64,000 nt of DNA, from assembly GCA_949152475.1 (NCBI GenBank), contig OX424563.1, positions 36,218,120-36,282,119 of the forward strand, read 5' to 3'. Source of the DNA: Terebella lapidaria. Lineage: Eukaryota > Annelida > Polychaeta > Terebellida > Terebellidae. How positions within the stretch are numbered: position 1 is the first letter of the stretch; each line of letters starts with the position of its first letter. The notes beneath the pieces were generated by a model. It saw only the letters and a list, made by a program, of their open reading frames with translations. It was not told the DNA's origin and ran no database searches. The translations under genes and the position numbers were made by a program. Of this stretch, positions 1,136-49,600 are shown piece after piece.

Positions 1136-1589
1136 TTTTTTTTAATGGACTTGGAATTTTTCCCTAACCTGCACCCATGCAAGTGCTGGCTCTCCATGCA
1201 GCCAGAAGTCTCTCTTATGGGTTTCTGATGCAGCCAAATACTGTAAAGCCTTGTCAGTCAGGTGCTGGTGCCCACTGTAACTAAGCCATGCTACTGTATT
1301 CACTGACTGCAGCCTGTGCAGCCTGAGAATAGGCTCTGCCGTCTCAGCCAGTGCTGTATGTATTATTTAAAGCCCGAGGAGCGCTCCATTACCTATTAGT
1401 ATTGGAGACCGAGGGCGAATCCCGAGTTAATTTTCACGGCAATGATATTTTAGCAGATGTGAATCCGCGAAATACGCGAAAATTACATTACCGCGAAAAT
1501 TACATGATTTACAGTATTACAATTGAAGTAACATAGGCAGAGTATATGTGCATGAGGCAGCATACGGTGGCTTAGATTCGCCATCACGT
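1136..1589. other. Non-coding spacer between two repeat elements
   Basis: No gene, RNA gene or clear repeat is recognised. Around 1466-1505 there is a short doubled motif, CGCGAAAATTACAT, near a second CGCGAAAT. Small open frames here have no recognisable product. Confidence 0.5.
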
Positions 1590-4110: not shown

Positions 4111-4135
4111 TTTACACCCCATTCAGTTTCCACCT

Positions 4136-4612
4136 CGGTGAGAACCTTCTCACCCCGGTGAAAACCTCACCTAGGTGAAAACCTTCTCACCCCGTTGAAA
4201 ACCTTCTCACCCCGGTGAATACCTTCTCACCCCGGTGAAAACCTTCTCACCCCGGTGAAAACCTTCCCACTCCGGTGAAAACCTTCTCACCCCGGTGAAT
4301 ACCTTCTCACACCGGTGAGAACCTTCTCACCCCGGTGAGAACCTTTTCACCCCGGTGAAAACCTTCTCACCCCCGTGAGAACCTTTTCACCCTGGTGAAA
4401 ACCTTCTCACCCCGCTGAAAACCTTCTCACCCCGATGAAAACCTTCTCACCCCGATGAAAACCTTCTCACCCCGGTGAAAATCTTCTCACCCCGGTGAAT
4501 ACCTTCTCACCCCAGTGAAAATCTTCTCACCCCGGTGAATACCTTCTCACCCCGGTGAAAACCTCCTCACCCTGGTGAAAACCTCCTCACCCTGGTCATC
4601 CCAGTAAAAACC
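4136..4612. repeat. 20-bp minisatellite (CCGGTGAAAACCTTCTCACC)n
   Basis: About 24 tandem copies of a 20-bp unit, with point variants (gaaaa/gaata/gagaa; ccccg/ccctg). The unit contains a near-palindrome CACC-CCGGTG. It lies between the end of element copy B and the inverted core array of copy C, where pearl-type elements carry a simple-repeat block. Confidence 0.9.
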
Positions 4613-7511: not shown

Positions 7512-7628
7512 ATGCCGGAAGGTTACTCGTTTCGTCAGGTAGACGAGAATCATGTCCCTGGAGTTGTTGTTAGCATGCTCTGGTCTCCAAAGATGGACCT
7601 GATCGCAGTCGCTAACGTACAAGGAGAG
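7512..7628 (+). CDS. ANAPC4: ANAPC4 exon 1
   Basis: Encodes 39 codons from ATG to QGE and ends in phase 0 at GAG|gtgagc. It contains the first propeller strand motif LWSPKMDLIAVAN, conserved in ANAPC4. The start was chosen because this ATG is the first in frame, the residues after it (SFRQVDENHVP) already align with the family N-terminus, and a TATA-like box lies about 50 bp upstream. Confidence 0.85.
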
Positions 7629-10600
7629 GTGAGCTATGATGATATTCAGCAGCATTTATCAACAAAATCATTGAACTGTTCCATATCCAGCATAAAGTGT
7701 AGGTTGATTAGACAACTGTATTTGACCAGGTGCTGCTGTATCGGCTGACATGGCAGAAGGTCTGGACACTATCCCCACCAGCAAAGGAGGTCCAAGTCAC
7801 TGCATTGGCATGGCGACCAGATGGCAAAGGTCCAGCTCTACCATCAATTATATTCATCAGAATTTGAATGATTTGAAAAAAAAAAGAATAAATGCAAGCT
7901 TTTTTAAGCAGCTGATCTTGAATGACACTTGTGAACCATGTTTTGAACACATAGTTCCTTACTCTAAATCACTTATAGTGTACATTGTGTATATACATGT
8001 ACAGCAAATTGTGTGAGATCAAAATACATAGGAATTCTTTTAGATCTCAAAAGCTATAAACAGAAGAAAACCTACAAGTTAGTATAAAGATCAGGTGATA
8101 CAAAAAGCACTATTTCAAGAAGGATTGTTGTTTATTGCAGTGCTTGCGGTGGGGTACAAGACAGGCAAGATCACACTGTGTGATGTGGAGATCTCCAGCC
8201 TGGTCCACGTGCTACAGATGACCTCCGGCGTGACATCGCTGACTTGGACAGCTGAGTTAGCAGGCGTCGGCCAGGGCTCAGCCAATCAGAGAGCTGGGGA
8301 GGGAGGCTCGAGTGGTCAACAGGACTGTTTCCAAGACACTTCCACACATGACCTGCCCAGACTTCCACAGTTCTCGAAAGCGTATGTTAAATAATATACC
8401 CAAAAATCTCACATTCAATAAGTTACTTCTGCATGCCTCTCATTTGTGTGTAAGGGCACACAACCTTTTGAAAATGTTTTATTTTTCGTTTTCAAATAGT
8501 TTCAGTTGCCGTGTTCATTTGTGTGTATTTTGATTTTTGTTTTCTTAACTTCGGAATTGCTTGCTTTCAGTTACTCTGCGTTGTCTGCAAGTGGAAAGTG
8601 AGTGTTATGTGTGGAAGAAAAGTATCTGAATCAAAATAAGGTCTCCTTTGTGTAAAATATAAATCTACTTGTGCAAGAATATATTGTTCAGTTTTTAATT
8701 TTTTGGAAAATGGTATAACTTGCCTCAATACCATATTGGTCCTAATAGTGGCACGCACCCCAATGGTAGAGCACCCCCCTGTTTTCCCCAAAAAATGTTT
8801 GATTTTGGTAACCTTGTAGTTCACTTCATATCTTTCTAATAAGATTCCAATCCACATATTTATGTTCATACTCAAGGAGATTGAAGGCCATAAGTATATT
8901 ATTCAGTAATTTTCTTAAATTTGACCTCGAATTTGACCTCATTTTCGCGCACGCTGCTATAGGAGGTCTTGCTTTGGCTCGCCGTGCTACTATTAGGATC
9001 AATATGGTATGTGCAACCATGTCTGTGTAACTTTGCATTTGATTGTGTGAATTGTCTCAATAACATTATGTTGTTGTTTTCCAGTGAGGAGATGGGTGAA
9101 GATTCTAAACGTTTGAAAGATCAAAAACAGTATGTCAACTTTTCTGTCATGATTTGTAATTTGAAGAATTTGAAGAATTATACAGTAAGATCTTGATCAG
9201 TTAAACATGTGTAGGAACTGTTGGTGTTTCAGGTTCGCAAAACTATAATAAAAAGTAAATCCAAAGCTAGATTTTTAACTTGTATGAAATGGAAATGATG
9301 TACATCTATGGAAATAAATAAAGTGCAGCTATATTTTTGAATATTTTGTGGCACCTTGCAGTCTGAACATTCTGACGGTGGGGTCGGAGGATGGACACAT
9401 ATGTCTGTTTGCCTACGGCATGTTTCCAGTGGCTTCTTTGGATCTACGCAATCACGGAACTGGCAAGGTCCTGTCTGAATACTGAGTACTGAATACAAAT
9501 AACATCACCGAGCCCCACACACACGAGATATGTTTTTGAAGATATATTGATGGAAATATGTTTGTACATGTGCCTTACAGTGTGGCCGCGTAGTGTCGTG
9601 TTACCTCTCCAACGGCCTGTACATGTTTGTATGTGTGTCTTACAGTGTGGCCGCGTAGTGTCGTGTTACCTCTCCAATGACCTGTACATGTTTGTACGTG
9701 TGTCTTACAGTGTGCCGCGTAGTGTCGTGTTACCTCTCCAATGACCTGTATATGTTTGTACGTGTGCCTTACAGTGTGGTCGCGTAGTGTCGTGTTACCT
9801 CTCCGATGACCTGTACATGTTTGTACGTGTGCCTTACAGTGTGGCCGCGTAGTGTCGTGTTACCTCTCCAATGACCTGTACATGTTTGTACGTGTGCATT
9901 ACAGTGTGGCCGCGTAGTGTCGTGTTACCTCTCCAATGACCTGTACATGTTCGTACGTGTGCCTTACAGTGTGGCCGCGTAGTGTCGTGTTACCTCTCCA
10001 ATGACCTGTACCTGTTTGTACGTGTGCCTTACAGTGTGGCCGCGTAGGGTCGTGTTACCTCTCCACTGACCTGTACATGTTTGTACGTGTGCCTTACAGT
10101 GTGGCCGCGTAGTGTCGTGTTACCTCTCCACTGACCTGTACATGTTTGTACGTGTGCCTTACAGTGTGGCCGCGTAGTGTCGTGTTACCTCTCCAACGAC
10201 CTGTACATGTTTGTACGTGTGCCTTACAGTGTGGCCGCGTAGTGTCGTGTTACCTCTCCAATGACCTGTACATGTTCGTACGTGTGCCTTACAGTGTGGC
10301 CGCGTAGTGTCGTGTTACCTCTCCAATGACCTGTACCTGTTTGTACGTGTGCCTTACAGTGTGGCCGCGTAGGGTCGTGTTACCTCTCCACTGACCTGTA
10401 CATGTTTGTACGTGTGCCTTACAGTGTGGCCGCGTAGTGTCGTGTTACCTCTCCACTGACCTGTACATGTTTGTACGTGTGCCTTACAGTGTGGCCGCGT
10501 AGTGTCGTGTTACCTCTCCAACGACCTGTACATGTTTGTACGTGTGCCTTACAGTGTGGCCGCGTAGTGTCGTGTTACCTCTCCACTGACCTGTACATGT

Positions 10601-13600
10601 TTGTACGTGTGCCTTACAGTGTGGCCGCGTAGTGTCGTGTTACCTCTCCAACGGCCTGTACATGTTTGTACGTGTGCCTTACAGTGTGGCCGCGTAGTGT
10701 CGTATTACCTCTCCAATGACCTGTACATGTTTGTACGTGTGCCTTACAGTGTGGCCGCGTAGTGTCGTGTTACCTCTCCACTGACCTGTACATGTTTGTA
10801 CGTGTGTCTCACAGTGTGTCCGCGTAGTGTCGTGTTACCTCTCCAATGACCTGTACATGTTTGTACGTGTGCCTTACAGTGTGGCCGCGTAGTGTCGTGT
10901 TACCTCTCCAATGACCTCTACATGTTTGTACGTGTGCCTTACAGTGTGGCCGCGTAGTGTTGTGTTACCTCTCCAATGACCTGTACATGTTTGTACGTGT
11001 GTCTTACAGTGTGGCCGCGTAGTGTCGTGTTACCTCTCCAATGACCTGTACATGTTTGTACGTGTGTCTTACAGTGTGGCCGCGTAGTGTCGTGTTACCT
11101 CTCCAACGACCTGTACATGTTTGTACGTGTGTCTCACAGTGTGTCCGCGTAGTGTCGTGTTACCTCTCCAATGACCTGTACATGTTTGTACGTGTGTCTG
11201 ACAGTGTTGCCGCGTAGTGTCGTGTTACCTCTCCAATGACCTGTACATGTTTGTGCGTGTGCCTTACAGTGTGGCCGCGTAGTGTCGTGTTACCTCTCCA
11301 ATGACCTGTACATGTTTGTACGAGTGTCTTACAGTGTGGCCGTGTAGTGTCGTGTTACCTCTCCAATGACCTGTACATGTTTGTACGTGTGTCTTACAGT
11401 GTGGCCGCGTAGTGTCGTGTTACCTCTCCAATGACCTGTACATGTTGGTACGTGTGTCTCACAGTGTGGCCGCGTAGTGTCGTGTTACCTCTCCAATGAC
11501 CTGTACATGTTTGTACGTGTGTCTTTCAGTGTGGGCGTGTAGTGTCGTGTTACCTCTCCAATGACCTGTACATGTTTGTACGTGTGTCTTACAGTGTGGC
11601 CGCGTAGTGTCGTGTTACCTCTCCAATGACCTGTACATGTTTGTACGTGTGTCTTTCAGTGTGGGCGTGTAGTGTCGTGTTACCTCTCCAATGACCTGTA
11701 CATGTTTGTACGTGTGTCTTTCAGTGTGGCCGCGTAGTGTCGTGTTACCTCTCCAATGACCTGTACATGTTTGTACGTGTGCTTACAGTGTGGCCGCGTA
11801 GTGTCGTGTTACCTCTCCAATGACCTGTACATGTTTGTACGTGTGTCTTTCAGTGTGGCCGCGTAGTGTCGTGTTACCTCTCCAATGACCTGTACATGTT
11901 TGTACGTGTGCCTTACAGTGTGGCCGGGTAGTGTCGTGTTACCTCTCCAATAACCTGTACATGTTTGTACGTGTGTCTTACAGTGTGGCCGCGTAGTGTC
12001 GTGTTACCTCTCCAATGACCTGTACGTGTTTGTACGTGTGCCTTAAAGTGTGGCCGCGTAGTGTCGTGTTATTTCTCCAATGACCTGTACATGTTTGTAC
12101 GTGTGCCTTACAGTGTGGCCGCGTAGTGTCGTGTTACCTCTCCAATGACCTGTACATGTTTGTACGTGTGTCTTACAGTGTGGCCGAGTAGTGTCGTGTT
12201 ACCTCTCCAATGACCTGTACATGTTTGTACGTGTGTCTGACAGTGTTGCCGCGTAGTGTCGTGTTACCTCTCCAATGACCTGTACATGTTTGTGCGTGTG
12301 CCTTACAGTGTGGCCGCGTAGTGTCGTGTTACCTCTCCAATGACCTGTACATGTTTGTACGAGTGTCTTACAGTGTGGCCGTGTAGTGTCGTGTTACCTC
12401 TCCAATGACCTGTACATGTTTGTACGTGTGTCTTACAGTGTGGCCGCGTAGTGTCGTGTTACCTCTCCAATGACCTGTACATGTTGGTACGTGTGTCTCA
12501 CAGTGTGGCCGCGTAGTGTCGTGTTACCTCTCCAATGACCTGTACATGTTTGTACGTGTGTCTTTCAGTGTGGGCGTGTAGTGTCGTGTTACCTCTCCAA
12601 TGACCTGTACATGTTTGTACGTGTGTCTTACAGTGTGGCCGCGTAGTGTCGTGTTACCTCTCCAATGACCTGTACATGTTTGTACGTGTGTCTTTCAGTG
12701 TGGGCGTGTAGTGTCGTGTTACCTCTCCAATGACCTGTACATGTTGGTACGTGTGTCTTTCAGTGTGGCCGCGTAGTGTCGTGTTACCTCTCCAATGACC
12801 TGTACATGTTTGTACGTGTGCTTACAGTGTGGCCGCGTAGTGTCGTGTTACCTCTCCAATGACCTGTACATGTTTGTACGTGTGTCTTTCAGTGTGGCCG
12901 CGTAGTGTCGTGTTACCTCTCCAATGACCTGTACATGTTTGTACGTGTGCCTTACAGTGTGGCCGGGTAGTGTCGTGTTACCTCTCCAATAACCTGTACA
13001 TGTTTGTACGTGTGTCTTACAGTGTGGCCGCGTAGTGTCGTGTTACCTCTCCAATGACCTGTACGTGTTTGTACGCGTGCCTTAAAGTGTGGCCGCGTAG
13101 TGTCGTGTTATTTCTCCAATGACCTGTACATGTTTGTACGTGTGCCTTACAGTGTGGCCGCGTAGTGTCGTGTTACCTCTCCAATGACCTGTACATGTTT
13201 GTACGTGTGTCTTACAGTGTGGCCGAGTAGTGTCGTGTTACCTCTCCAATGACCTGTACATGTTTGTACGTGTGTCTTACAGTGTGGCCGCGTAGTGTCG
13301 TGTTACCTCTCCAATGACCTGTACGTGTTTGTACGTGTGCCTTACAGTGTGGCCGTGTAGTGTCGTGTTACCTCTCCAATGACCTGTACATGTTTGTACG
13401 TGTGTCTTACAGTGTGGCCGCGTAGTGTCGTGTTACCTCTCCAATCACCTGTACATGTTTGTACGTGTGTCTGACAGTGTTGCCGCGTAGTGTCGTGTTA
13501 CCTCTCCAATGACCTGTACATGTTTGTACGTGTGCCTTACAGTGTGGCAGCGTAGTGTCGTGTTACCTCTCGAATAACCTGTACATGTTTGTACGTGTGT

Positions 13601-16600
13601 CTTACAGTGTGGCCTAGTAGTGTCGTGTTTCCTCTGCAATGACCTGTACATGTTTGTACGTGTGTCTTACAGTGTGGCCGCGTAGTGTCGTGTTACCTCT
13701 CCAATGACCTGTACATGTTTGTACATGTGTCTTACAGTGTGGCCGCGTAGTGTCGTGTTACCTCTCCAATGACCTGTACATGTTTGTACGTGTGTCTTAC
13801 AGTGTGACCGCGTAGTGTCGTGTTACCTCTCCAATGACCTGTACATGTTTGTACGTGTGTCTTACAGTGTGGCCGGATAGTGTCGTGTTACCTCTCCAAT
13901 GACCTGTACATGTTTGTACGTGTGCCTTACAGTGTGGCCGGGTAGTGTCGTGTTACCTCTCCAATGACCTGTACATGTTTGTATGTGTGTCTTACAGTGT
14001 GGGCGCGTAGTGTCGTGTTAACTTTTCAATGACCTGTACATGTTTGTACGTGTGTCTTACAGTGTGGCCGCGTAGTGTCGTGTTACCTCTCCAATGACCT
14101 GTACATGTTTGTACGTGTGTCTTACAGTGTGGCCCAGTAGTGTCGTGTTTCCTCTGCAATGACCTGTACATGTTTGTACGTGTGTCTTACAGTGTGGCCG
14201 CGTAGTGTCTTGTTACCTCTCCAATGACCTGTATATGTTTGTACGTGTGTCTTACAGTGTGGCCGCGTAGTGTCGTGTTACCTTTCCAATGACCTGTACA
14301 TGTTTGTACGTGTGCCTTACTGTGTGGCCGCGTAGTGTCGTGTTACCTCTCCAATGACCTGTACATGTTTGTACGTGTGTCTTACAGTGTGGCCGCGTAG
14401 TGTCGTGTTACCTCTCCAATGACCTGTACATGTTTGTACGTGTGTCTCACAGTGTGGCCGCGTAGTGTCGTGTTACCTCTCCAATGACCTGTACATGTTT
14501 GTACGTGTGCCTTACAGTGTGGCCCTGTAGTGTCGTGTTTCCTCTCCAATGACCTGTACCTGTTTGTACGTGTGCCTTGCAGTGTGGCCGCATAGTGTCG
14601 TGTTACCTCTCCAATGACCTGTACATGTTTGTACGTGTGCCTTACAGTGTGGCCGCGTAGTGTCGTGTTACCTCTCCAATGACCTGTACATGTTTGTACG
14701 TGTGTCTGACAGTGTGGCCGCGTAGTGTCGTGTTACCTCTCCGACCTGTACATGTTTGTACGTGTGTCTTACAGTGTGGCCGCGTAGTGTCGTGTTACCT
14801 CTCCAATGACCTGTACATGTTTGTGCGTGTGCCTTACAGTGTGGCCGCATAGTGTCGTGTTACCTCTCCAATGACCTGTACATGTTTGTACGTGTGTCTT
14901 ACAGTGTGGCCGCGTAGTGTCGTGTTACCTCTCCAATGACCTGTACATGTTTGTACATGTGTCTTACAGTGTGGCCGCGTATTGTCGTGTTACCTCTCCA
15001 ATGACCTGTACATGTTTGTACGTGTGTCTTACAGTGTGGCCGCGTAGTGTCGTGTTACCTCTCCAATGACCTGTACATGTTTGTATGTGTGCCTTACAGT
15101 GCGGCCGGATAGTGTCGTGTTACCTCTCCAATGACCTGTACATGTTTGTACCTGTGCCTTACAGTGTGGCCGCGTAGTGTCGTGTTACCTCCGACCTGTA
15201 CATGTTTGTACGTATGCCTTACAGTGTGGCCGCTTAATGTCGTGTTACCTCTCCAATGACCTGTACATGTTTGTACGTGTGTCTTACAGTGTGGCCGCGT
15301 AGTGTCGTGTTACCTCTCCAATGACCTGTACATGTTTGTACGTGTGTCTTACAGTGTGGCCGCGTAGTGTCGTGTTACCTCTCCAATGACCTGTACATGT
15401 TTGTACGTGTGTCTTACAGTGTGGCCGCGTAGTGTCATGTTACCTCTCCAATGACCTGTACATGTTTGTACGTGTGCCTTACAGTGTGGCCGCGTAGTGT
15501 CGTGTTTCCTTTCCAATGACCTGTACATGTTTGTACGTGTGTCTTACAGTGTGGCCGCGTAGTGTCGTGTTACCTCCGACCTGTACATGTTTGTACGTGT
15601 GCCTTACAGTGTGGCCGCGTAATGTCGTGTTACCTCTCCAATGACCTGTACATGTTTGTACGTGTGCCTTACAGTGTGGCCGCGTAGTGTCGTGTTACCT
15701 CTCCAATGACCTGTACATGTTTGTACGTGTGTCTTACAGTGTGGCCGCGTAGTGTCGTGTTACCTCTCCAATGACCTGTACATGTTTGTACGTGTGTCTT
15801 ACAGTGTGGCCGCGTAGTGTCGTGTTTCCTCTCCAATGACCTGTACATGTTTGTACGTGTGCCTTACAGTGTGGCCGCGTAGTGTCGTGTTACCTCTCCA
15901 ATGACCTGTACATGTTTGTACGTGTGTCTTACAGTGTGGTCGAGTAGTGTACTGTTACCTCTCCAATGACCTGTACATGTTTGTACGTGTGTCTTACAGT
16001 GTGGCCGCGTAGTGTCGTGTTGCCTCTCCATTGACCTGTACCTGTTTGTATGTGTGCCTTACAGTGTGGCCGCGTAGTGTCGTGTTACCTCTCCAATGAC
16101 CTGTACATGTTTGTACGTGTGTCTTACAGTGTGGCCGCGTAGTGTCGTGTTACCTCTCCAATGACCTGTACATGTTTGTACGTGTGTCTTACAGTGTGGC
16201 CGCGTAGTGTCGTGTTACCTCTCCAATGACCTGTACATGTTTGTACGTGTGTCTTACAGTGTGGCCGCGTAGTGTCGTGTTACCTCTCCAATGACCTGTA
16301 CATGTTTGTACGTGTGTCTTACAGTGTGGCCGCGTAGTGTCGTGTTACCTCTCCAATGACCTGTACATGTTTGTACGTGTGTCTTACAGTGTGGCCGCGT
16401 AGTGTCGTGTTACCTCTCCAATGACCTGTACATTATTGTACGTGTGGCTTACAGTGTGGCCGCGTAGTGTCGTGTTACCTCTCCAATGACCTGTACATGT
16501 TTGTACATGTGTCTTACAGTGTGGCCGCGTAGTGTCGTGTTAACTCTCCAATGACCTGTACATGTTTGTGTGTGTGTCTTACAGTGTGGCCGGGTAGTGT

Positions 16601-19600
16601 CGTGTTACCTCTCGAATGACCTGTACATGTTTGTACGTGTGTCTTACAGTGTGGCCGCGTAGTGTCGTATTACCTCTCCAATGACCTGTACATGTTTGTA
16701 CGTGTGTCTTACAGTGTGGCCGCGTAGTGTCGTATTACTTCTCCAATGACCTGTACATGTTTGTTCGTGTGCCTTACAATGTGGCCGCATAGTTCGTGTT
16801 ACCTCTCCAATGACCTGTACATGTTTGTACGTGTGTCTTAGAGTGTGGCCGCGTAGTGTCATTTTACCTCTCCAATGACCTGTACATGTTTGTATGTGTG
16901 CCTGACAGTGTGGCCGCGTAGTGTCGTGTTACCTCTCGAATGACCTGTACATGTTTGTACGTGTGCCTGACAGTGTGGCCGCGTAGTGTCGTGTTACCTC
17001 TCGAATGACCTGTACATGTTTGTACGTGTGTCTTACAGTGTGGCCGCGTAGTGTCGTATTACCTCTCCAATGACCTGTACATGTTTGTTCGTGTGCCTTA
17101 CAATGTGGCCGCGTAGTTCGTGTTACCTCTCCAATGACCTGTACATGTTTGTACGTGTGTCTTAGAGTGTGGCCGCGTAGTGTCATGTTACCACTCCAAT
17201 GACCTGTACATGTTTGTAAGTGTGTCTTACAGTGTGGCCGCGTAGTGTCGTGTTACCTCTCCAATGACCTGTACATGTTTGTACGTGTGTCTTACAGTGT
17301 GGCCGCGTAGTGTCGTGTTACCTCTCCAATGACCTGTACATGTTTGTACGTGTGCCTTACAGTGTGGCCGCGTAGTGTCGTGTTACCTCTCCAATGACCT
17401 GTACATGTTTGTACGTGTGCTTTACAGTGTGGCCGTGTAGTGTCGTGTTACCTCTCCAATGACCTGTACATGTTTGTACGTGTGTCTTACAGTGTGGCCG
17501 CGTAGTGTCGTATTACCTCTCCAATGACCTGTACATGTTTGTTCGTGTGCCTTACAATGTGGCCGCGTAGTTCGTGTTACCTCTGCAATGACCTGTACAT
17601 GTTTGTACGTGTGTCTTAGAGTGTGGCCGCGTAGTGTCATGTTACCTCTCCAATGACCTGTACATGTTTGTAAGTGTGTCTTACAGTGTGGCCGCGTAGT
17701 GTCGTGTTACCTCTCCAATGACCTGTACATGTTTGTACGTGTGTCTTACAGTGTGGCCGCGTAGTGTCGTGTTACCTCTCCAATGACCTGTACATGTTTG
17801 TACGTGTGCCTTACAGTGTGGCCGCGTAGTGTCATGTTACCTCTCCAATGACCTGTACATGTTTGTACGTGTGTCTTACAGTGTGACCGCGTAGTGTCGT
17901 GTTACCTCTCCAATGACCTGTACATGTTTGTACGTGTGTCTTACAGTGTGGCCGGATAGTGTCGTGTTACCTCTCCAATGACCTGTACATGTTTGTACGT
18001 GTGCCTTACAGTGTGGCCGGGTAGTGTCGTGTTACCTCTCCAATGACCTGTACATGTTTGTATGTGTGTCTTACAGTGTGGGCGCGTAGTGTCGTGTTAA
18101 CTTTTCAATGACCTGTACATGTTTGTACGTGTGTCTTACAGTGTGGCCGCGTAGTGTCGTGTTACCTCTCCAATGACCTGTACATGTTTGTACGTGTGTC
18201 TTACAGTGTGGCCCAGTAGTGTCGTGTTTCCTCTGCAATGACCTGTACATGTTTGTACGTGTGTCTTACAGTGTGGCCGCGTAGTGTCTTGTTACCTCTC
18301 CAATGACCTGTATATGTTTGTACGTGTGTCTTACAGTGTGGCCGCGTAGTGTCGTGTTACCTTTCCAATGACCTGTACATGTTTGTACGTGTGCCTTACT
18401 GTGTGGCCGCGTAGTGTCGTGTTACCTCTCCAATGACCTGTACATGTTTGTACGTGTGTCTTACAGTGTGGCCGCGTAGTGTCGTGTTACCTCTCCAATG
18501 ACCTGTACATGTTTGTACGTGTGTCTCACAGTGTGGCCGCGTAGTGTCGTGTTACCTCTCCAATGACCTGTACATGTTTGTACGTGTGCCTTACAGTGTG
18601 GCCCTGTAGTGTCGTGTTTCCTCTCCAATGACCTGTACCTGTTTGTACGTGTGCCTTGCAGTGTGGCCGCATAGTGTCGTGTTACCTCTCCAATGACCTG
18701 TACATGTTTGTACGTGTGCCTTACAGTGTGGCCGCGTAGTGTCGTGTTACCTCTCCAATGACCTGTACATGTTTGTACGTGTGTCTGACAGTGTGGCCGC
18801 GTAGTGTCGTGTTACCTCTCCGACCTGTACATGTTTGTACGTGTGTCTTACAGTGTGGCCGCGTAGTGTCGTGTTACCTCTCCAATGACCTGTACATGTT
18901 TGTGCGTGTGCCTTACAGTGTGGCCGCATAGTGTCGTGTTACCTCTCCAATGACCTGTACATGTTTGTACGTGTGTCTTACAGTGTGGCCGCGTAGTGTC
19001 GTGTTACCTCTCCAATGACCTGTACATGTTTGTACATGTGTCTTACAGTGTGGCCGCGTATTGTCGTGTTACCTCTCCAATGACCTGTACATGTTTGTAC
19101 GTGTGTCTTACAGTGTGGCCGCGTAGTGTCGTGTTACCTCTCCAATGACCTGTACATGTTTGTATGTGTGCCTTACAGTGCGGCCGGATAGTGTCGTGTT
19201 ACCTCTCCAATGACCTGTACATGTTTGTACCTGTGCCTTACAGTGTGGCCGCGTAGTGTCGTGTTACCTCCGACCTGTACATGTTTGTACGTATGCCTTA
19301 CAGTGTGGCCGCTTAATGTCGTGTTACCTCTCCAATGACCTGTACATGTTTGTACGTGTGTCTTACAGTGTGGCCGCGTAGTGTCGTGTTACCTCTCCAA
19401 TGACCTGTACATGTTTGTACGTGTGTCTTACAGTGTGGCCGCGTAGTGTCGTGTTACCTCTCCAATGACCTGTACATGTTTGTACGTGTGTCTTACAGTG
19501 TGGCCGCGTAGTGTCATGTTACCTCTCCAATGACCTGTACATGTTTGTACGTGTGCCTTACAGTGTGGCCGCGTAGTGTCGTGTTTCCTTTCCAATGACC

Positions 19601-37600: not shown

Positions 37601-40600
37601 TTAGGCCGCGTAGTGTCGTGTTACCTCTCCAATGACCTGTACATGTTTGTACGTGTGTCTTACAGTGTGGCCGCGTAGTGTCGTGTTACCTTTCCAATGA
37701 CCTGTACATGTTTGTACGTGTGTCTCACAGTGTGGCCGTGTAGTGTTGTGTTACCTCTCCAATGACCTGTACATGTTTGTACGTGTGTCAAACAGTGTGG
37801 CCGCGTAGTGTCGTGTTACCTCTCCAATGACCTGTACATGTTTGTACGTGTGTCTCACAGTGTGGCCGTGTAGTGTCGTGTTACCTCTCCAATGACCTGT
37901 ACATGTTTGTACGTGTGCCTTACAGTGTGGCCGGGTAGTGTCGTGTTACCTCTCCAATGACCTGTACATGTTTGTACGTGTGTCTTACAGTGTGGCCGCG
38001 TAGTGTCGTGTTTCCTTTCCAATGACCTGTACATGTTGTACGTGTGTCTTACAGTGTGGCCGCGGATTGTCGTGTTACCTCTCCAATGACCTGTACGTGT
38101 TTGTACGTGTGTTTTACATTGTGGCCGCGTAGTGTCGTGTTACCTCTCCAATGACCTGTACATGTTTATACGTGTGTCTTACAGTGTGGACGCGTAGTGT
38201 CGTGTTACCTTTCCAATGACCTGTACATGTTTGTACGTGTGCCTTACAGTGTGGCCGCGTAGTGTCGTGTTACCTCTCCAATGACCCGTACATGTTTATA
38301 CGTGTGTCTTACAGTGTGGACGCGTAGTGTCGTGTTACCTTTCCAATGACCTGTACATGTTTGTACGTGTGCCTCACACTGTGGCCGCGTAGTGTCGTGT
38401 TACCTCTCCAATGACCTGTACATGTTTGTATGTGTGTCTTACAGTGTGGCCGTGTAGTGTCGTGTTACCTCTCCAATGACCTGTACATGTTTGTACGTGT
38501 GTCTTACAGTGTGGCCGTGTAGTGTCGTGTTACCTCTCCAATGACCTGTACATGTTTGTACGTGTGTCTTACAGTGTGGCCGCGTAGTGTCGTGTTACCT
38601 CTCCAATGACCTGTACATGTTTGTACGTGTGTCTTACAGTGTGGCCGCGTAGTGTCGTGTTACCTCTCCAATGACCTGTACATGTTTGTACATGTGCCTT
38701 ACAGTGTGGCCGCGTAGTGTCGTGTTTCCTTTCCAATGACCTGTACATGTTTGTACATGTGCCTTACAGTGTGGCCGTGTAGTGTCGTGTTACCTCTCCA
38801 ATGACCTGTACATGTTTGTACGTGTGTCTTACAGTGTGGCCGCGTGGTGTCGTGTTACCTCTCCAATGACCTGTACATGTTTGTACGTGTGCCTTACAGT
38901 GTGGCCGTGTAGTGTCGTGTTACTTCTCCAATGACCTGTACATGTTTGTACGTGTGCCTTACAGTGTGGCCGCGTGGTGTCGTGTTACCTCTCCAATGAC
39001 CTGTACATGTTTGTACGTGTGTCTTACAGTGTGGCCGCGTAGTGTCGTGTTACCTCTCCAATGACCTGTACATGTTTGTACGTGTGCCTTACAGTGTGGC
39101 CGCGTAGTGTCGTGTTTCCTTTCCAATGACCTGTACATGTTTGTACGTGTGTCTTACAGTGTGGCCGCGTAGTGTCGTGTTACCTCTCCGATGACCTGTA
39201 CATGTTTGTACGTGTGTCTTACAGTGTGGCCGCGTAGTGTCGTGTTACCTCTCCAATGACCTGTACATGTTTGTATGTGTGTCTTTAAGTGTGGCCGCAT
39301 AGTGTCGTGTTACCTCTCCAATGACCTGTACATGTTTGTACGTGTGTCTTACAGTGTGGCCGCGTAGTGTCGTGTTACCTTTCCAATGACCTGTACATGT
39401 TTGTACGTGTGTCTTACAGTGTGGCCGCGTAGTGTCGTGTTACCTCTCCAATGACCTGTACATGTTTGTACGTGTGTCTTACAGTGTGGCCGCGTAGTGT
39501 CGTGTTACCTCTCCAATGACCTGTACATGTTTGTACGTGTGTCTTACAGTGTGGCCGCGTAGTGTCGTGTTACCTCTCCAATGACCTGTACATGTTTGTA
39601 CGTGTGTCTTACAGTGTGGCCGCGTAGTGTCGTGTTACCTCTCCAATGACCTGTACATGTTTGTACGTGTGCCTTACAGTGTGGCCGCGTAGTGTCGTGT
39701 TACCTCTCCAATGACCTGTACATGTTTGTACGTGTGCCTTACAGTGTGGCCGCTTAGTGTCGTGTTACCTCTCCAATGACCTGTACATGTTTGTACGTGT
39801 GCCTTACAGTGTGGCCGCGTAGTGTCGTGTTACCTCTCCAATGACCTGTACATGTTTGTACGTGTGTCTTACAGTGTGGCCGCGTAGGGTCGTATTACCT
39901 CTCCAATGACCTGTACATGTTTGTACGTGTGTCTTACAGTGTGGCCGCGTAGTGTCGTATTACCTCTCCAATGACCTGTACATGTTTGTTCGTGTGCCTT
40001 ACAATGTGGCCGCGTAGTTCGTGTTACCTCTCCAATGACCTGTACATGTTTGTACGTGTGTCTTAGAGTGTGGCCGCGTAGTGTCATTTTACCTCTCCAA
40101 TGACCTGTACATGTTTGTACGTGTGCCTGACAGTGTGGCCGCGTAGTGTCGTGTTACCTCTCGAATGACCTGTACATGTTTGTACGTGTGTCTTACAGTG
40201 TGGCCGCGTAGTGTCGTATTACCTCTCCAATGACCTGTACATGTTTGTTCGTGTGCCTTACAATGTGGCCGCGTAGTTCGTGTTACCTCTCCAATGACCT
40301 GTACATGTTTGTACGTGTGTCTTAGAGTGTGGCCGCGTAGTGTCATGTTACCACTCCAATGACCTGTACATGTTTATAAGTGTGTCTTACAGTGTGGCCA
40401 CGTAGTGTCGTGTTACCTCTCCAATGACCTGTACATGTTTGTACGTGTGTCTTACAGTGTGGCCGCGTAGTGTCGTGTTACCTCTCCAATGACCTGTACA
40501 TGTTTGTACGTGTGCCTTACAGTGTGGCCGCGTAGTGTCGTGTTACCTCTCCAATGACCTGTACATGTTTGTACGTGTGCTTTACAGTGTGGCCGTGTAG

Positions 40601-43600
40601 TGTCGTGTTACCTCTCCAATGACCTGTACATGTTTGTACGTGTGTCTTACAGTGTGGCCGCGTAGTGTCGTATTACCTCTCCAATGACCTGTACATGTTT
40701 GTCCGTGTGCCTTACAATGTGGCCGCGTAGTTCGTGTTACCTCTCCAATGACCTGTACATGTTTGTACGTGTGTCTTAGAGTGTGGCCGCGTAGTGTCAT
40801 GTTACCTCTCCAATGACCTGTACATGTTTGTAAGTGTGTCTTACAGTGTGGCCGCGTAGTGTCGTGTTACCTCTCCAATGACCTGTACATGTTTGTACGT
40901 GTGCCTTACAGTGTGGCCGCGTAGTGTCGTGTTACCTCTCCAATGACCTGTACATGTTTGTACGTGTGCCTTACAGTGTGGCCGCGTAGTGTCGTGTTAC
41001 CTCTCCAATGACCTGTACATGTTTGTACGTGTGCTTTACAGTGTGGCCGTGTAGTGTCGTGTTACCTCTCCAATGACCTGTACATGTTTGTACGTGTGTC
41101 TTACAGTGTGGCCGCGTAGTGTCGTGTTACCTCTCCAATGACCTGTACATGTTTGTTCGTGTGCCTTACAATGTGGCCGCGTAGTTCGTGTTACCTCTCC
41201 AATGACCTGTACATGTTTGTACGTGTGTCTTACAGTGTGGCCGCGTAGTGTCGTGTTACCTCTCCAATGACCTGTACATGTTTGTACGTGTGCTTTACAG
41301 TGTGGCCGCGTAGTGTCGTGTTACCTCTCCAATGACCTGTACATGTTTGTAAGTGTGTCTTACAGTGTGGCCGCGTAGTGTCGTGTTACCTCTCCAATGA
41401 CCTGTACATGTTTGTACGTGTGCCTTACAGTGTGGCCGCGTAGTGTCGTGTTACCTCTCCAATGACCTGTACATGTTTGTACGTGTGCCTTACAGTGTGG
41501 CCGCGTAGTGTCGTGTTACCTCTCCAATGACCTGTACATGTTTGTACGTGTGCCTTACAGTGTGGCCGCGTAGTGTCGTGTTACCTCTCCAATGACCTGT
41601 ACATGTTTGTACGTGTGCCTTACAGTGTGGCCGCGTAGTGTCGTGTTACCTCTCCAATGACCTGTACATGTTTGTACGTGTGCCTTACAGTGTGGCCGCG
41701 TAGTGTCGTGTTACCTCTCCAATGACCTGTACATGTTTGTACGTGTGCCTTACAGTGTGGCCGCGTAGTGTCGTGTTACCTCTCCAATGACCTGTACATG
41801 TTTGTACGTGTGCCTTACAGTGTGGCCGCGTAGTGTCGTGTTACCTCTCCAATGACCTGTACATGTTTGTACGTGTGGCTTACAGTGTGGCCGCGTAGTG
41901 TCGTGTTACCTCTCCAATGACCTGTACATGTTTGTAAGTGTGTCTTACAGTGTGGCCGCGTAGTGTCGTGTTACCTCTCCAATGACCTGTACATGTTTGT
42001 ACGTGTGCCTTACAGTGTGGCCGCGTAGTGTCGTGTTACCTCTCCAATGACCTGTACATGTTTGTACGTGTGCCTTACAGTGTGGCCGCGTAGTGTCGTG
42101 TTACCTCTCCAATGACCTGTACATGTTTGTACGTGTGCTTTACAGTGTGGCCGTGTAGTGTCGTGTTACCTCTCCAATGACCTGTACATGTTTGTACGTG
42201 TGTCTTTCAGTGTGGGCGTGTAGTGTCGTGTTACCTCTCCAATGACCTGTACATGTTTGTAAGTGTGTCTTACAGTGTGGCCGCGTAGTGTCGTGTTACC
42301 TCTCCAATGACCTGTACATGTTTGTTAGTGTGTCTTACAGTGTGGCCGCGTAGTGTCGTGTTACCTCTCCAATGACCTGTACATGTTTGTACGTGTGCCT
42401 TACAGTGTGGCCGCGTAGTGTCGTGTTACCTCTCCAATGACCTGTACATGTTTGTACGTGTGCCTTACAGTGTGGCCGCGTAGTGTCGTGTTACCTCTCC
42501 AATGACCTGTACATGTTTGTACGTGTGCTTTACAGTGTGGCCGCGTAGTGTCGTGTTACCTCTCCAATGACCTGTACATGTTTGTACGTGTGTCTTACAG
42601 TGTGGCCGCGTAGTGTCGTGTTACCTCTCCAATGACCTGTACATGTTTGTACGTGTGTCTTACAGTGTGGCCGCGTAGTGTCGTGTTACCTCTCCAATGA
42701 CCTGTACATGTTTGTACGTGTGTCTTACAGTGTGGCCGCGTAGTGTCGTGTTACCTCTCCAATGACCTGTACATGTTTGTAAGTGTGTCTTACAGTGTGG
42801 CCGCGTAGTGTCGTGTTACCTCTCCAATGACCTGTACATGTTTGTACGTGTGCCTTACAGTGTGGCCGCGTAGTGTCGTGTTACCTCTCCAATGACATGT
42901 ACATGTTTGTACGTGTGCCTTACAGTGTGGCCGCGTAGTGTCGTGTTACCTCTCCAATGACCTGTACATGTTTGTACGTGTGCTTTATAGTGTGGCCGTG
43001 TAGTGTCGTGTTACCTCTCCAATGACCTGTACATGTTTGTACGTGTGGCTTACAGTGTGGCCGCGTAGTGTCGTGTTACCTCTCCAATGACCTGTACATG
43101 TTTATAAGTGTGTCTTACAGTGTGGCCGCGTAGTGTCGTGTTACCTCTCCAATGACCTGTACATGTTTGTTTGTGTGCTTTACAGTGTGGCCGCGTAGTG
43201 TCGTGTTACCTCTCCAATGACCTGTACATGTTTGTACGTGTGTCTTTCAGTGTGGGCGTGTAGTGTCGTGTTACCTCTCCAATGACCTGTACATGTTTGT
43301 ACGTGTGTCTTTCAGTGTGGGCGTGTAGTGTCGTGTTACCTCTCCAATGACCTGTACATGTTTGTACGTGTGCCTTACAGTGTGGCCGCGTAGTGTCGTG
43401 TTACCTCTCCAATGACCTGTACATGTTTGTACGTGTGGCTTACAGTGTGGCCGTGTAGTGTCGTGTTACCTCTCCAATGACCTGTACATGTTTGTACGTG
43501 TGTCTTACAGTGTGGCCGCGTAGTGTCGTGTTACCTCTCCAATGACCTGTACATGTTTGTACATGTGTCTTACAGTGTGGCCGCGTAGTGTCGTGTTACC

Positions 43601-46600
43601 TCTCCAATGACCTGTACATGTTTGTACGTGTGGCTTACAGTGTGGCCGCGTAGTGTCGTGTTACCTCTCCAATGACCTGTACATGTTTGTAAGTGTGTCT
43701 TACAGTGTGGCCGCGTAGTGTCGTGTTACCTCTCCAATGACCTGTACATGTTTGTACGTGTGCCTTACAGTGTGGCCGCGTAGTGTCGTGTTACCTCTCC
43801 AATGACCTGTACATGTTTGTACGTGTGCCTTACAGTGTGGCCGCGTAGTGTCGTGTTACCTCTCCAATGACCTGTACATGTTTGTACGTGTGCTTTACAG
43901 TGTGGCCGTGTAGTGTCGTGTTACCTCTCCAATGACCTGTACATGTTTGTACGTGTGCTTTACAGTGTGGCCGTGTAGTGTCGTGTTACCTCTCCAATGA
44001 CCTGTACATGTTTGTACGTGTGCCTTACAGTGTGGCCGCGTAGTGTCGTGTTACCTCTCCAATGACCTGTACATGTTTGTATGTGTGCTTTGCAGTGTGG
44101 CCGTGTAGTGTCGTGTTACCTCTCCAATGACCTGTACATGTTTGTTCGTGTGCCTTACAATGTGGCCGCGTAGTTCGTGTTACCTCTCCAATGACCTGTA
44201 CATGTTTGTACGTGTGTCTTAGAGTGTGGCCGCGTAGTGTCATGTTACCACTCCAATGACCTGTACATGTTTATAAGTGTGTCTTACAGTGTGGCCACTT
44301 AGTGTCGTGTTACCTCTCCAATGACCTGTACATGTTTGTACGTGTGTCTTACAGTGTGGCCGCGTAGTGTCGTGTTACCTCTCCAATGACCTGTACATGT
44401 TTGTACGTGTGCCTTACAGTGTGGCCGCGTAGTGTCGTGTTACCTCTCCAATGACCTGTACATGTTTGTACGTGTGCTTTACAGTGTGGCCGTGTAGTGT
44501 CGTGTTACCTCTCCAATGACCTGTACATGTTTGTACGTGTGTCTTACAGTGTGGCCGCGTAGTGTCGTATTACCTCTCCAATGACCTGTACATGTTTGTT
44601 CGTGTGCCTTACAATGTGGCCGCGTAGTTCGTGTTACCTCTCCAATGACCTGTACATGTTTGTACGTGTGTCTTAGAGTGTGGCCGCGTAGTGTCATGTT
44701 ACCTCTCCAATGACCTGTACATGTTTGTAAGTGTGTCTTACAGTGTGGCCGCGTAGTGTCGTGTTACCTCTCCAATGACCTGTACATGTTTGTATGTGTG
44801 CCTTACAGTGTGGCCGCGTAGTGTCGTGTTACCTCTCCAATGACCTGTACATGTTTGTACGTGTGCCTTACAGTGTGGCCGCGTAGTGTCGTGTTACCTC
44901 TCCAATGACCTGTACATGTTTGTACGTGTGTCTTAGAGTGTGGCCGTGTAGTGTCGTGTTACCTCTCCAATGACCTGTACATGTTTGTACGTGTGTCTTA
45001 CAGTGTGGCCGCGTAGTGTCGTGTTACCTCTCCAATGACCTGTACATGTTTGTATGTGTGCTTTACAGTGTGGCCGTGTAGTGTCGTGTTACCTCTCCAA
45101 TGACCTGTACATGTTTGTACGTGTGCTTTATAGTGTGGCCGTGTAGTGTCGTGTTACCTCTCCAATGACCTGTACATGTTTGTACGTGTGCTTTATAGTG
45201 TGGCCGTGTAGTGTCGTGTTACCTCTCCAATGACCTGTACATGTTTGTACGTGTGTCTTACAGTGTGGCACGTAGTGTCGTGTTACCTTTCCAATGACCT
45301 GTACATGTTTGTACGTGTGTCTCACAGTGTGGCCGCGTAGTGTCGTGTTACCTCTCCAATGACCTGTACATGTTTGTACGTGTGTCTTACAGTGTGGCCG
45401 CGTAGTGTCGTGTTACCTCTCCAATGACCTGTACATGTTTATACGTGTGTCTTACAGTGTGGCCGCGTAGGGTCGTGTTACCTCTCCAATGACCTGTACA
45501 TGTTTGTACGTGTGTCTTACAGTTAGGCCGCGTAGTGTCGTGTTACCTCTCCAATGACCTGTACATGTTTGTACGTGTGTCTTACAGTGTGGCCGCGTAG
45601 TGTCGTGTTACCTTTCCAATGACCTGTACATGTTTGTACGTGTGTCTCACAGTGTGGCCGTGTAGTGTCGTGTTTTCTTTCCAATGACCTGTACATGTTT
45701 GTACATGTGCCTTACAGTGTGGCCGCGTAGTGTCGTGTTACCTCTCCAATGACCTGTACATGTTTGTACGTGTGTCTTACAGTGTGGCCGCGTGGTGTCG
45801 TGTTACCTCTCCAATGACCTGTACATGTTTGTACGTGTGCCTTACAGTGTGGCCGTGTAGTGTCGTGTTACCTCTCCAATGACCTGTACATGTTTGTACG
45901 TGTGCCTTACAGTGTGGCCGCGTGGTGTCGTGTTACCTCTCCAATGACCTGTACATGTTTGTACGTGTGTCTTACAGTGTGGCCGCGTAGTGTCGTGTTA
46001 CCTCTCCAATGACCTGTACATGTTTGTACGTGTGCCTTACAGTGTGGCCGCGTAGTGTCGTGTTTCCTTTCCAATGACCTGTACATGTTTGTACGTGTGT
46101 CTTACAGTGTGGCCGCGTAGTGTCGTGTTACCTCTCCGATGACCTGTACATGTTTGTACGTGTGTCTTACAGTGTGGCCGCGTAGTGTCGTGTTACCTCT
46201 CCAATGACCTGTACATGTTTGTATGTGTGTCTTTAAGTGTGGCCGCATAGTGTCGTGTTACCTCTCCAATGACCTGTACATGTTTGTACGTGTGTCTTAC
46301 AGTGTGGCCGCGTAGTGTCGTGTTACCTTTCCAATGACCTGTACATGTTTGTACGTGTGTCTTACAGTGTGGCCGCGTAGTGTCGTGTTACCTCTCCAAT
46401 GACCTGTACATGTTTGTACGTGTGTCTTACAGTGTGGCCGCGTAGTGTCGTGTTACCTCTCCAATGACCTGTACATGTTTGTACGTGTGTCTTACAGTGT
46501 GGCCGCGTAGTGTCGTGTTACCTCTCCAATGACCTGTACATGTTTGTACGTGTGTCTTACAGTGTGGCCGCGTAGTGTCGTGTTACCTCTCCAATGACCT

Positions 46601-49600
46601 GTACATGTTTGTACGTGTGCCTTACAGTGTGGCCGCGTAGTGTCGTGTTACCTCTCCAATGACCTGTACATGTTTGTACGTGTGCCTTACAGTGTGGGCG
46701 CTTAGTGTCGTGTTACCTCTCCAATGACCTGTACATGTTTGTACGTGTGTCTTTCAGTGTGGCCGTGTAGTGTCGTGTTACCTCTCCAACGACCTGTACA
46801 TGTTTGTACGTGTGCCTTACAGTGTGGCCGCGTAGTGTCGTGTTTCCTCTCCAATGACCTGTACATGTTTGTACGTGTGTCTTACAGTCTGGCCGCGTAG
46901 TGTCGTGTTACCTCTCCAATGACCTGTACATGTTTGTACGTGTGCCTTACAGTGTGGCCGCGTAGTTTCGTGTTTCCTCTTCAATGACCTGTACATGTTT
47001 GTACGTGTGTCTTACAGTGTGGCCGCGTAGTGTCGTGTTATTTCTCCAATGACCTGTACATGTTTGTACGTGTGCCTTACAGTGTTGCCGCGTAGTGTCG
47101 TGTTACCTCTCCAATGACCTGTACATGTTTGTACGTGTGTCTTACAGTGTGGCCGCGTAGTGTCGTGTTACCTCTCCAATGACCTGTACATGTTTGTACG
47201 TGTGGCTTACAGTGTGGCCGCGTAGTGTCGTGTTACCTCTCCAATGACCTGTACATGTTTGTACGTGTGCCTTACAGTGTGGCCCCGTAGTGTCGTGTTA
47301 CCTCTCCAATGACCTGTACATGTTTGTGCGTGTGCCTTACAGTGTGGCCGCGTAGTGTCGTGTTACCTCTCCAATGACCTGTACATGTTTGTACGTGTGC
47401 CTTACAGTGTGGCCCCGTAGTGTCGTGTTACCTCTCCAATGACCTGTACATGTTTGTACATGTGTCTTACAGTGTGGCCGCGTAGTGTCGTGTTACCTCT
47501 CCAACGATCTGTACATGTTTGTACGTGTGTCTTACAGTGTGGCCGCGTAGTGTCGTGTTACCTCTCCGACCTGTACATGTTTGTACGTGTGTCTTACAGT
47601 GTGGCCGCATAGTGTCGTGTTACCTCTCCAATGACCTGTACATGTTTGTACGTGTGTCTTACAGTGTGGCCGCGTAGTGTCGTGTTACCTCTCCAATGAC
47701 CTGTACATGTTGGTACGTGTGTCTTACAGTGTGGCCGCGTAGTGTCGTGTTACCTCTCCAATGACCTGTACATCTTTGTACGTGTGTCTTACAGTGTTGC
47801 CGTGTAGTGTCGTGTTACCTCTCCAACGACCTGTACATGTATGTACGTGTGCCTTACAGTGTGGCCGCGTAGTGTCGTATTACCTCTCCAATGACCTGTA
47901 CATGTTTGTACGTGTGCCTTACAGTGTGGCCGCGTAGTGTCGTGTTACCTCTCCAATGACCTGTCATGTTTGTACGTGTGCCTTACAGTGTGGCCGCGTA
48001 GTGTCGTGTTACCTCTCCAACGACCTGTACATGTATGTACGTGTGCCTTACAGTGTGGCCGCGTAGTGTCGTGTTACCTCTCCAATGACCTGTACATGTA
48101 TGTACGTGTGCCTTACAGTGTGGCCGCGTAGTGTCGTGTTACCTCTCCAATGACCTGTACCTGCTGACTGCTCTTGTGGAGGCGCAGCGCGAAGACAGTA
48201 CGGCCAAAGACGTATTCCTCATCTCGGTCGGTACTTGTGCACATATATATATAGACTCGTATGTAATATATATTTACCATGAACTTATTTTCAGCTTTGT
48301 GAAATACGTGTATTGTCAAGTTCTTACCTGTACACGACTTTTCTACATGTCTAGTTTGACACGACACTGCTGGCCTCACGTCACAGAGAGTTACGTATTC
48401 TGGCTCTCAAGTTTGGACAAGTGCTAACTCTAATGCAGGTACGTGACAAGGGCCTTGATCTGTTGTGGCTGATGAGTGAATGTGTCCACATTACTTCAGT
48501 AAACATGTATATCATGGCATGGTGGAATCAGCTGACCAGTCTTTGACTGTTTGCTTCAGTACCTAGATTCCACGATACAGCAGATGATCGAGTCTTGGGA
48601 GGATATTCTGCTCGAGATTGACTCAAAACTCATGAAACTTGCCGAGGAGAAATATGTAAGTTGTTTGTCGTGTTTGAGTCATTGTCTTTGAATAACATAA
48701 ACTCTCGGTACCAGCACCAACTGATATGTATACAACAATTCCCAGTGATATTCACGCAGTCATTTCCAAACTGCCCCCTTTTAAGTATTTGACATTGTTT
48801 TGTGTGAATACTTGCAGAAAGCTTGCGGTGGTTCAGTCAGCAATGATTTCCTGCGACTGCTGATGTTGGGCCTGCCCAGGTATGTGTTGTCATGATGCTG
48901 GGCCTGCCAGGTATGTGTTGTCATGATCTGGGCCTGCCCAGGTATGTGTTGTCATGATCTGGGTCTGCCCAGGTATGTGTTGTCATGATCTGGGTCTGCC
49001 CAGGTATGTGTTGTCCTGCCCAGGTATGTGTTGTCATGATCTGGGTCTGCCCAGGTATGTGTTGTCGTGATCTGGGTCTGCCCAGGTATGTGTTATCGTG
49101 ATGCTGGGTCTGCCCAGGTATGTGTTGTCGTGATCTGGGTCTGCCCAGGTATGTGTTGTCGTGATCTGGGTCTGCCCAGGTATGTGTTGTCATGATCTGG
49201 GTCTGCCCAGGTATGTGTTGTCGTGATCTGGGTCTGCCCAGGTATGTGTTGTCATGATCTGGGTCTGCCCAGGTATGTGTTGTCCTGCCCAGGTATGTGT
49301 TGTCGTGATCTGGGTCTGCCCAGGTATGTGTTGTCCTGCCCAGGTATGTGTTGTCGTGATCTGGGTCTGCCCAGGTATGTGTTATCGTGATGCTGGGTCT
49401 GCCCAGGTATGTGTTGTCGTGATCTGGGTCTGCCCAGGTATGTGTTGTCGTGATCTGGGTCCGCCCAGGTATGTGTTGTCATGGTCTGGGTCTGCCCAGG
49501 TATGTGTTGTCGTGATCTGGGTCTGCCCAGGTATGTGTTCTCCTGCCCAGGTATGTGTTGTCGTGATCTGGGTCTGCCCAGGTATGTGTTATCGTGATGC

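What the first reader, a model, noticed from the sequence alone, without database searches (positions are those of the whole stretch)
9558..48226. A 38.6-kb satellite built from a gene's own 3' splice site
Each of about 590 units contains the last 23 nt of ANAPC4 intron 6 (including CTTACAG) and the first 42 nt of exon 7. The final unit runs directly into the unique part of exon 7. The junction CTGTAC/ATGTTTGTAC suggests an initial duplication through the GTAC microhomology shared by the intron (tttGTACatg) and the exon (ctGTACctg). A tandem array grown from a coding exon border and kept within a conserved cell-cycle gene is highly unusual, and it places hundreds of potential acceptors upstream of the real one.
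Basis: partly seen in the sequence, partly recalled or inferred. Interest (0 to 1): 0.95.

Follow-up and report, generated by a model that had tools for sequence, protein, structure and literature searches.

The report
Giant splice-site satellite in ANAPC4
A cell-division gene carries huge tandem arrays made of copies of its own exon-intron borders, including one of 595 copies, which looks like an extreme case of the small 'mirage' repeats already described in lancelet genes and is a natural test of how cells pick one splice site among hundreds of copies.

Summary
Window 9558-48160 holds 595 head-to-tail units of 65 nt: the last 23 nt of ANAPC4 intron 6 plus the first 42 nt of exon 7. The last unit runs into unique exon 7. 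AG is intact in 555 of 595 units. Each of the 554 intact upstream acceptors, if used and read through, meets a stop codon before exon 7 ends.

It is not alone. A third (~32 units of 78 nt, 5' splice site) lies downstream in the same gene. Together they are about 41% of the traced gene.

The kind is known: 'mirages' in lancelet Adh3, globin, TnC and PGBD5 genes, reportedly without disturbing splicing. Copy numbers I saw there are 2-7; here 595. The species is not identified; array length rests on the assembly; no reads or RNA were available. Verdict: new, very large member of a known kind.

The parts
9558..48160 (+). Array 1: 595 units of 65 nt (23 nt end of intron 6 + 42 nt start of exon 7), a 3'-splice-site satellite
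48119..48226 (+). ANAPC4 exon 7; its first 42 nt (48119-48160) are the exonic part of the last unit
   Evidence: alignment to APC4 chains
9362..9467 (+). ANAPC4 exon 6, donor GGCAAG|GTCCTG, upstream partner of the intron that holds array 1
48818..48879 (+). ANAPC4 exon 10; its last 13 nt (48867-48879) are the exonic part of the first unit of array 2
48867..56679 (+). Array 2: 252 units of ~31 nt (13 nt end of exon 10 + 18 nt start of intron 10), a 5'-splice-site satellite; AGGT intact in 244 of 252
56752..56794 (+). ANAPC4 exon 11, downstream of array 2
7512..57241 (+). ANAPC4 coding exons 1-13 (the gene continues downstream of the window)

Best explanation
These are 'mirages': minisatellites born by tandem duplication of a short stretch that straddles a splice junction and then amplified, here to satellite size. 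Shown: three arrays in one ANAPC4 gene, one from a 3' splice site (exon 7) and two from 5' splice sites (exon 10 and a late exon, the latter's borders set by eye); exactly repeated unit blocks inside arrays 1 and 2; and, by read-through, stop codons behind 554 of 554 intact upstream copies of the exon 7 acceptor. Inferred: the arrays are spliced out as intron. The spliceosome uses the exon-proximal copy (last acceptor of array 1, first donor of arrays 2 and 3), most simply through exon definition, because only that copy adjoins unique exon and its other splice site. Mis-spliced RNA would mostly carry premature stops and be destroyed. Growth is then nearly neutral, because duplicating a splice border leaves one correct border next to the exon. 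Expansion by unequal exchange or block duplication is inferred from the repeated blocks.
For: Frame is open across all 13 modelled exons with the exon-proximal junctions, and the peptide matches APC4 through exons 6-7 and 10-11. All 554 upstream intact AG acceptors, read through, give a stop before exon 7 ends, 513 of them at codon index 25 counted from 0. Reading past the exon 10 donor stops within the intron part of the first unit, which every downstream donor would include. In array 3 the open frame ends at a TGA inside the first donor, ATG TGA. Decoys copy the real sites: CAGGTATGT occurs 241 times in array 2 and GTGTGCCTTACAGTGT 132 times in array 1, authentic copies included. Block growth: an exact 33-unit block repeats 63 units apart, 365 of 595 units lie in exact repeats of 5 or more units, and 166 unit types exist. 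No clear sign that decoys are purged or kept: AG is broken in 40 of 595, and exon and intron columns do not differ significantly in diversity (Mann-Whitney p 0.27). Three of eight arrays (period up to 100, 400 bp or more) in the traced gene straddle a border, P 0.0016-0.0058 under random placement. Published mirages affect both boundary types and reportedly spare splicing.
Against: No RNA was examined, so which acceptor is used is unknown. Exon definition is not favoured by strong partners: exon 6 and 7 donors are weak (GTCCTG, GTCGGT). Species not identified, so the lancelet link is by resemblance. The border-enrichment test is post hoc and assumes 38-60 exon borders. Five of the eight arrays in the gene were not seen to touch a border. 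No further border array was recognised in the other sampled stretches, about 144 kb around the gene and 100 kb elsewhere, though these were screened by TRF table and by eye, not annotated. The globin authors note that the AG/GT signals of mirage units could act as cryptic sites.
Confidence: 0.82

Rival explanations
1. The array exists but its 38.6-kb length is an assembly artefact (over-expansion or a repeated block in the graph).
For: No reads were available. An exact 33-unit block (about 2.1 kb) repeats 63 units away. The 2010 globin paper reports an aberrantly assembled mirage in the genome draft (supplement legend seen).
Against: 166 distinct unit types with 72 singletons, and indel variants, are not what simple over-copying of one block gives; contig C9 is 41.5 Mb, a chromosome-scale assembly. 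Arrays 2 and 3 show the same phenomenon at 7.8 and 2.4 kb, lengths that a single long read can cross (general knowledge).
Confidence: 0.1
2. A pre-existing satellite inserted at the exon and was recruited as the exon border.
For: The genome-wide search could not be completed, so copies elsewhere are not excluded.
Against: The exonic 42 nt encode a stretch that aligns with vertebrate APC4, likewise the end of exon 10; no 16-mer of any of the three unit consensuses was found in about 315 kb sampled outside the arrays.
Confidence: 0.03
3. The arrays are functional: decoy sites make poison transcripts that dampen ANAPC4 output or slow its transcription.
For: Upstream acceptors of array 1 and read-through past the first donor of array 2 lead to premature stops; the three arrays add about 49 kb to the gene.
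Against: Splice-core columns are not specially conserved: AG broken in 40 of 595, AG-column heterozygosity 0.064 against means of 0.075 (intron part) and 0.035 (exon part). Published mirages reportedly give no aberrant mRNA.
Confidence: 0.07
4. Single units are sometimes included as pseudo-exons. AG to the downstream GTACGT gives 48 nt, in frame and without a stop, adding 16 residues to APC4.
For: GTACGT is present in 459 of 595 units at that place; the consensus frame was read directly from the unit.
Against: GTACGT after TTT looks like a weak donor (not scored); the insert has no counterpart in the aligned vertebrate APC4 chain.
Confidence: 0.04

Closest known systems
Lancelet 'mirages' (minisatellites spanning exon-intron boundaries): Adh3 (Canestro et al. 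2002, NAR 30:2871; seen only as a reference), globins BflGb6 and BflGb9 (PMC3087553, passages), TnC and PGBD5 (PMC3902484, passages)
   Same: Tandem repeats containing an intron end plus the adjoining exon part; both 5' and 3' boundaries affected; units carry AG/GT signals; homogenised unit blocks; sit in genes with intact frames.
   Different: Here 595, 252 and ~32 units in one gene, against 6 and 3 units in two BflGb6 haplotypes, a duplicate in BflGb9 and 2-7 units in PGBD5. Adh3 units are 10-72 bp; Adh3 and TnC copy numbers not seen by me. Species here not shown to be a lancelet.
Intron gain by duplication of AG/GT proto-splice sites (Rogers; Gao and Lynch; Zhuo et al., as cited in PMC3087553)
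   Same: Internal duplication of sequence containing splice signals.
   Different: Here an existing border is multiplied inside an existing intron; no new intron position was looked for or seen.
Ordinary intronic minisatellites and satellites
   Same: Head-to-tail array with repeated unit blocks.
   Different: The founder unit includes coding sequence and a splice site, and one array end is still the exon border.

Membership tests
mirage (splice-border minisatellite) | Tandem repeat units span an exon-intron boundary | tested here: met
   23+42 nt, 13+18 nt, about 51+27 nt (the last split by eye)
mirage (splice-border minisatellite) | Terminal unit is the authentic border of the gene | tested here: met
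   acceptor before 48119 in the last unit of array 1; donor after 48879 in the first unit of array 2
mirage (splice-border minisatellite) | Many units keep AG or GT splice signals | tested here: met
   AG 555 of 595, AGGT 244 of 252; CATGTGAGT 22 of 32
mirage (splice-border minisatellite) | Regular splicing is undisturbed | not testable with these tools
   no RNA data
mirage (splice-border minisatellite) | Length instability between alleles or in soma | not testable with these tools
   one assembly; only repeated internal blocks seen
mirage (splice-border minisatellite) | Found in cephalochordates (the only group in which I saw them described) | tested here: inconclusive
   genome searches meant to help identify the species did not complete
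dispersed satellite family | Same unit present at other loci | tested here: inconclusive
   0 hits of 16-mers in about 315 kb; whole-genome search not scored or not answered

The most novel reading that the evidence does not exclude
Splice borders in this genome are hot spots from which introns grow outward to satellite size. ANAPC4 tolerates more than 800 decoy splice sites because the splicing machinery reliably takes the copy touching unique exon sequence, so border duplication is a nearly free route to gene-size inflation (three arrays, about 41% of the traced gene).
Probability: 0.4. Interest if true: 0.75.

Novelty: new member of a known kind. Interest (0 to 1): 0.58.

Why it matters
How one splice site is chosen among near-identical copies is, to my knowledge, mostly studied with a few engineered duplicates. 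Here nature offers a 3' array where the last of 555 AG sites should win and a 5' array where the first of about 250 should win, in one gene, with stop codons as built-in reporters of errors. It also shows how far splice-border minisatellites can grow, and that one gene can start them three times.

Tried and rejected
GTAC microhomology as origin: rejected (55-nt spacing, blunt junction). Selection on the exonic part of decoys: codon-position and exon/intron differences are not significant (p 0.19 and 0.27). Structure-driven expansion: as single-stranded DNA the array 1 and array 3 units fold worse than their shuffles (z 1.52 and 1.18), the array 2 unit somewhat better (z -1.95); not pursued. 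Five other arrays in ANAPC4 introns, looked at as possible border arrays: no exon border seen in them, by eye; one of them, 60-nt units at L001:3356-6132, lies in the long intron after exon 13. A search of strung-together open frames for all remaining exons was prepared but not run, so the total exon number is unknown. Sampling of 100 kb on other contigs found no clear border array. Microhomology for array 2: TGATG is shared between exon and intron next to a one-base mismatch, suggestive only (by eye; the strict test gives 0). Four papers were searched for facts on lancelet genomes (PMC12828049, PMC10506793, PMC9673378, PMC12862219; passages); nothing usable for naming the species; the last cites a preprint on the Asymmetron genome that is not held.
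Full report
What is there. The window carries the first 13 coding exons of an ANAPC4 gene on the + strand, from 7512 to 57241, with an open frame through every junction. The spliced peptide matches APC4 chains in the PDB (best E 2.5e-77, chain 5bpt_A 'MGC81278 protein', which I recall as the Xenopus protein; chains named anaphase-promoting complex subunit 4 at 4.7e-76 to 5.4e-76) and the Pfam ANAPC4 and ANAPC4_WD40 families. Between exon 6 (ends 9467) and the unique part of exon 7 (48161-48226) lies one tandem array, 9558-48160: 595 units, 545 of them exactly 65 nt. Each unit is the last 23 nt of intron 6 and the first 42 nt of exon 7. AG is intact in 555 of 595 units and TTACAG in 460 of 595.

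A second array, 48867-56679, has 252 units of about 31 nt. Its first unit is the real end of exon 10 (last 13 nt, 48867-48879) followed by the first 18 nt of intron 10 (GTATGTG...); AGGT is intact in 244 of 252 units. I fetched 100 kb on each side and traced the gene downstream. Late exon peptides match APC4 (E 4.3e-17). A third array, L007:772-3213, has 32 units (the last one partial) of about 78 nt made of the end of the exon SMSHVIHDISFYDDAHF...NLQY and the start of its intron; the donor reads CATGTGAGT in 22 of 32 units and CATGTGTGT in 9 of 32. The borders of that exon were set by eye from the frame and the next exon. The three arrays total 48.9 kb, 41% of the 120 kb traced. The gene's 3' end was taken as the end of the last matching open frame and is approximate.

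Is it more than chance? The arrays themselves are beyond doubt. For the link with borders: of eight arrays with period up to 100 and length of at least 400 bp in the traced gene, three straddle a border; random placement gives P 0.0016 to 0.0058 for 38 to 60 assumed borders. The choice of arrays was made after seeing them. No further border array was recognised in the rest of the 264 kb or in 100 kb from other places, screened by TRF table and by eye only.

Consequences for splicing. From each of the 554 upstream acceptors with intact AG I read on to the end of exon 7: all 554 meet a stop, 513 at codon index 25 counted from 0. This assumes that nothing inside the retained stretch is spliced out again. 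Reading past the first donor of array 2 meets a stop inside the intron part of the first unit, so every downstream donor would include it. In array 3 the open frame ends at a TGA inside the first donor (ATG TGA). So a simple productive message needs the last acceptor of array 1 and the first donors of arrays 2 and 3, always the copy that touches unique exon. The local sites hardly distinguish these copies: the 9-mer CAGGTATGT occurs 241 times in array 2, and the 16-mer around the real acceptor 132 times in array 1, authentic copies included. The full 23-mer around the real acceptor occurs only 3 times, because the last units carry a variant base upstream. Exon definition would explain the choice; it is inferred, and the weak donors of exons 6 and 7 do not favour it. 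One alternative stays open: a 48-nt in-frame pseudo-exon (AG to GTACGT, the latter in 459 of 595 units).

How it arose and grew. The exonic part of array 1 encodes residues that align, with a three-residue gap, to vertebrate APC4, and the end of exon 10 aligns as well, so the exons are most likely older than the satellites. Array 1 holds an exact 33-unit block that recurs 63 units away, 365 of 595 units lie in exact repeats of five or more units, and 166 unit types exist, 72 of them singletons; array 2 holds exact blocks of up to 15 units. That points to block duplication. Decoy splice sites show no clear conservation or purging: AG is broken in 40 of 595 units, and the AG columns lie between the intron and exon means in diversity.

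Comparison with what is known. 'Mirages', tandem repeats spanning exon-intron boundaries, were named in lancelet Adh3 (10-72 bp units) and described in globins BflGb6 (150-160 bp; 6 and 3 units in two haplotypes) and BflGb9 (157 bp), at both 5' and 3' boundaries. The authors say that the structures seem not to interfere with regular splicing, though units could act as cryptic sites, and note length and somatic instability (PMC3087553, passages read). PGBD5 of lancelet has 2 or 7 repeats of 60 bp and 3 or 6 of 108 bp at splice sites in two assemblies, and TnC is named too (PMC3902484, passages read). The Adh3 paper itself is not held, so its copy numbers are unknown to me. I recalled the name before finding it in these papers. 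Two answered searches on this topic listed three papers each, and I read passages of two of them; neither mentions, in what I saw, a mirage of this size or one in ANAPC4. The library lacks most subscription papers and all preprints.

Limits. The species is not identified; a lancelet is my guess from the mirages and from the chromosome-scale contigs (761.6 Mb in 438 contigs; C1 100.8 Mb, C2 61.9 Mb, C9 41.5 Mb). No reads, RNA or related genomes were available. The whole-genome search for the unit was answered once without scoring and then not at all, so absence elsewhere holds only for about 315 kb.

Verdict. Real, correctly read in anatomy, wrong on the microhomology, incomplete in scope, and an extreme member of a described class.

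Noticed in passing
window 61693-62730 (+): Open frame with a reverse transcriptase domain (Pfam RVT_1, E 9.9e-22) in the ANAPC4 intron after exon 13, near another long frame 59391-61229 without a Pfam match; a retroelement.
   Followed up: partly
window 769-6584: A ~147-bp satellite family (ATATCTCGGAAACGG...), seemingly in both orientations, upstream of the gene; look-alikes of the same period recur in both flanks.
   Followed up: no
window 4131-4596 and L005:2903-3076: The same 20-bp unit CACCCCGGTGAAAACCTTCT forms arrays at two places about 103 kb apart.
   Followed up: no
window 7829, 9467, 48226: Donors of exons 2, 6 and 7 are weak GTC types (GTCCAG, GTCCTG, GTCGGT), yet the modelled frame uses them.
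   Followed up: partly
L007:772-3213: Third splice-border array of ANAPC4, 78-nt units, about 32 copies.
   Followed up: yes
L016:7882-8453: A 30-nt array of 19 copies lying close to what looks, by eye, like a coding exon on the minus strand, but not crossing its border.
   Followed up: no
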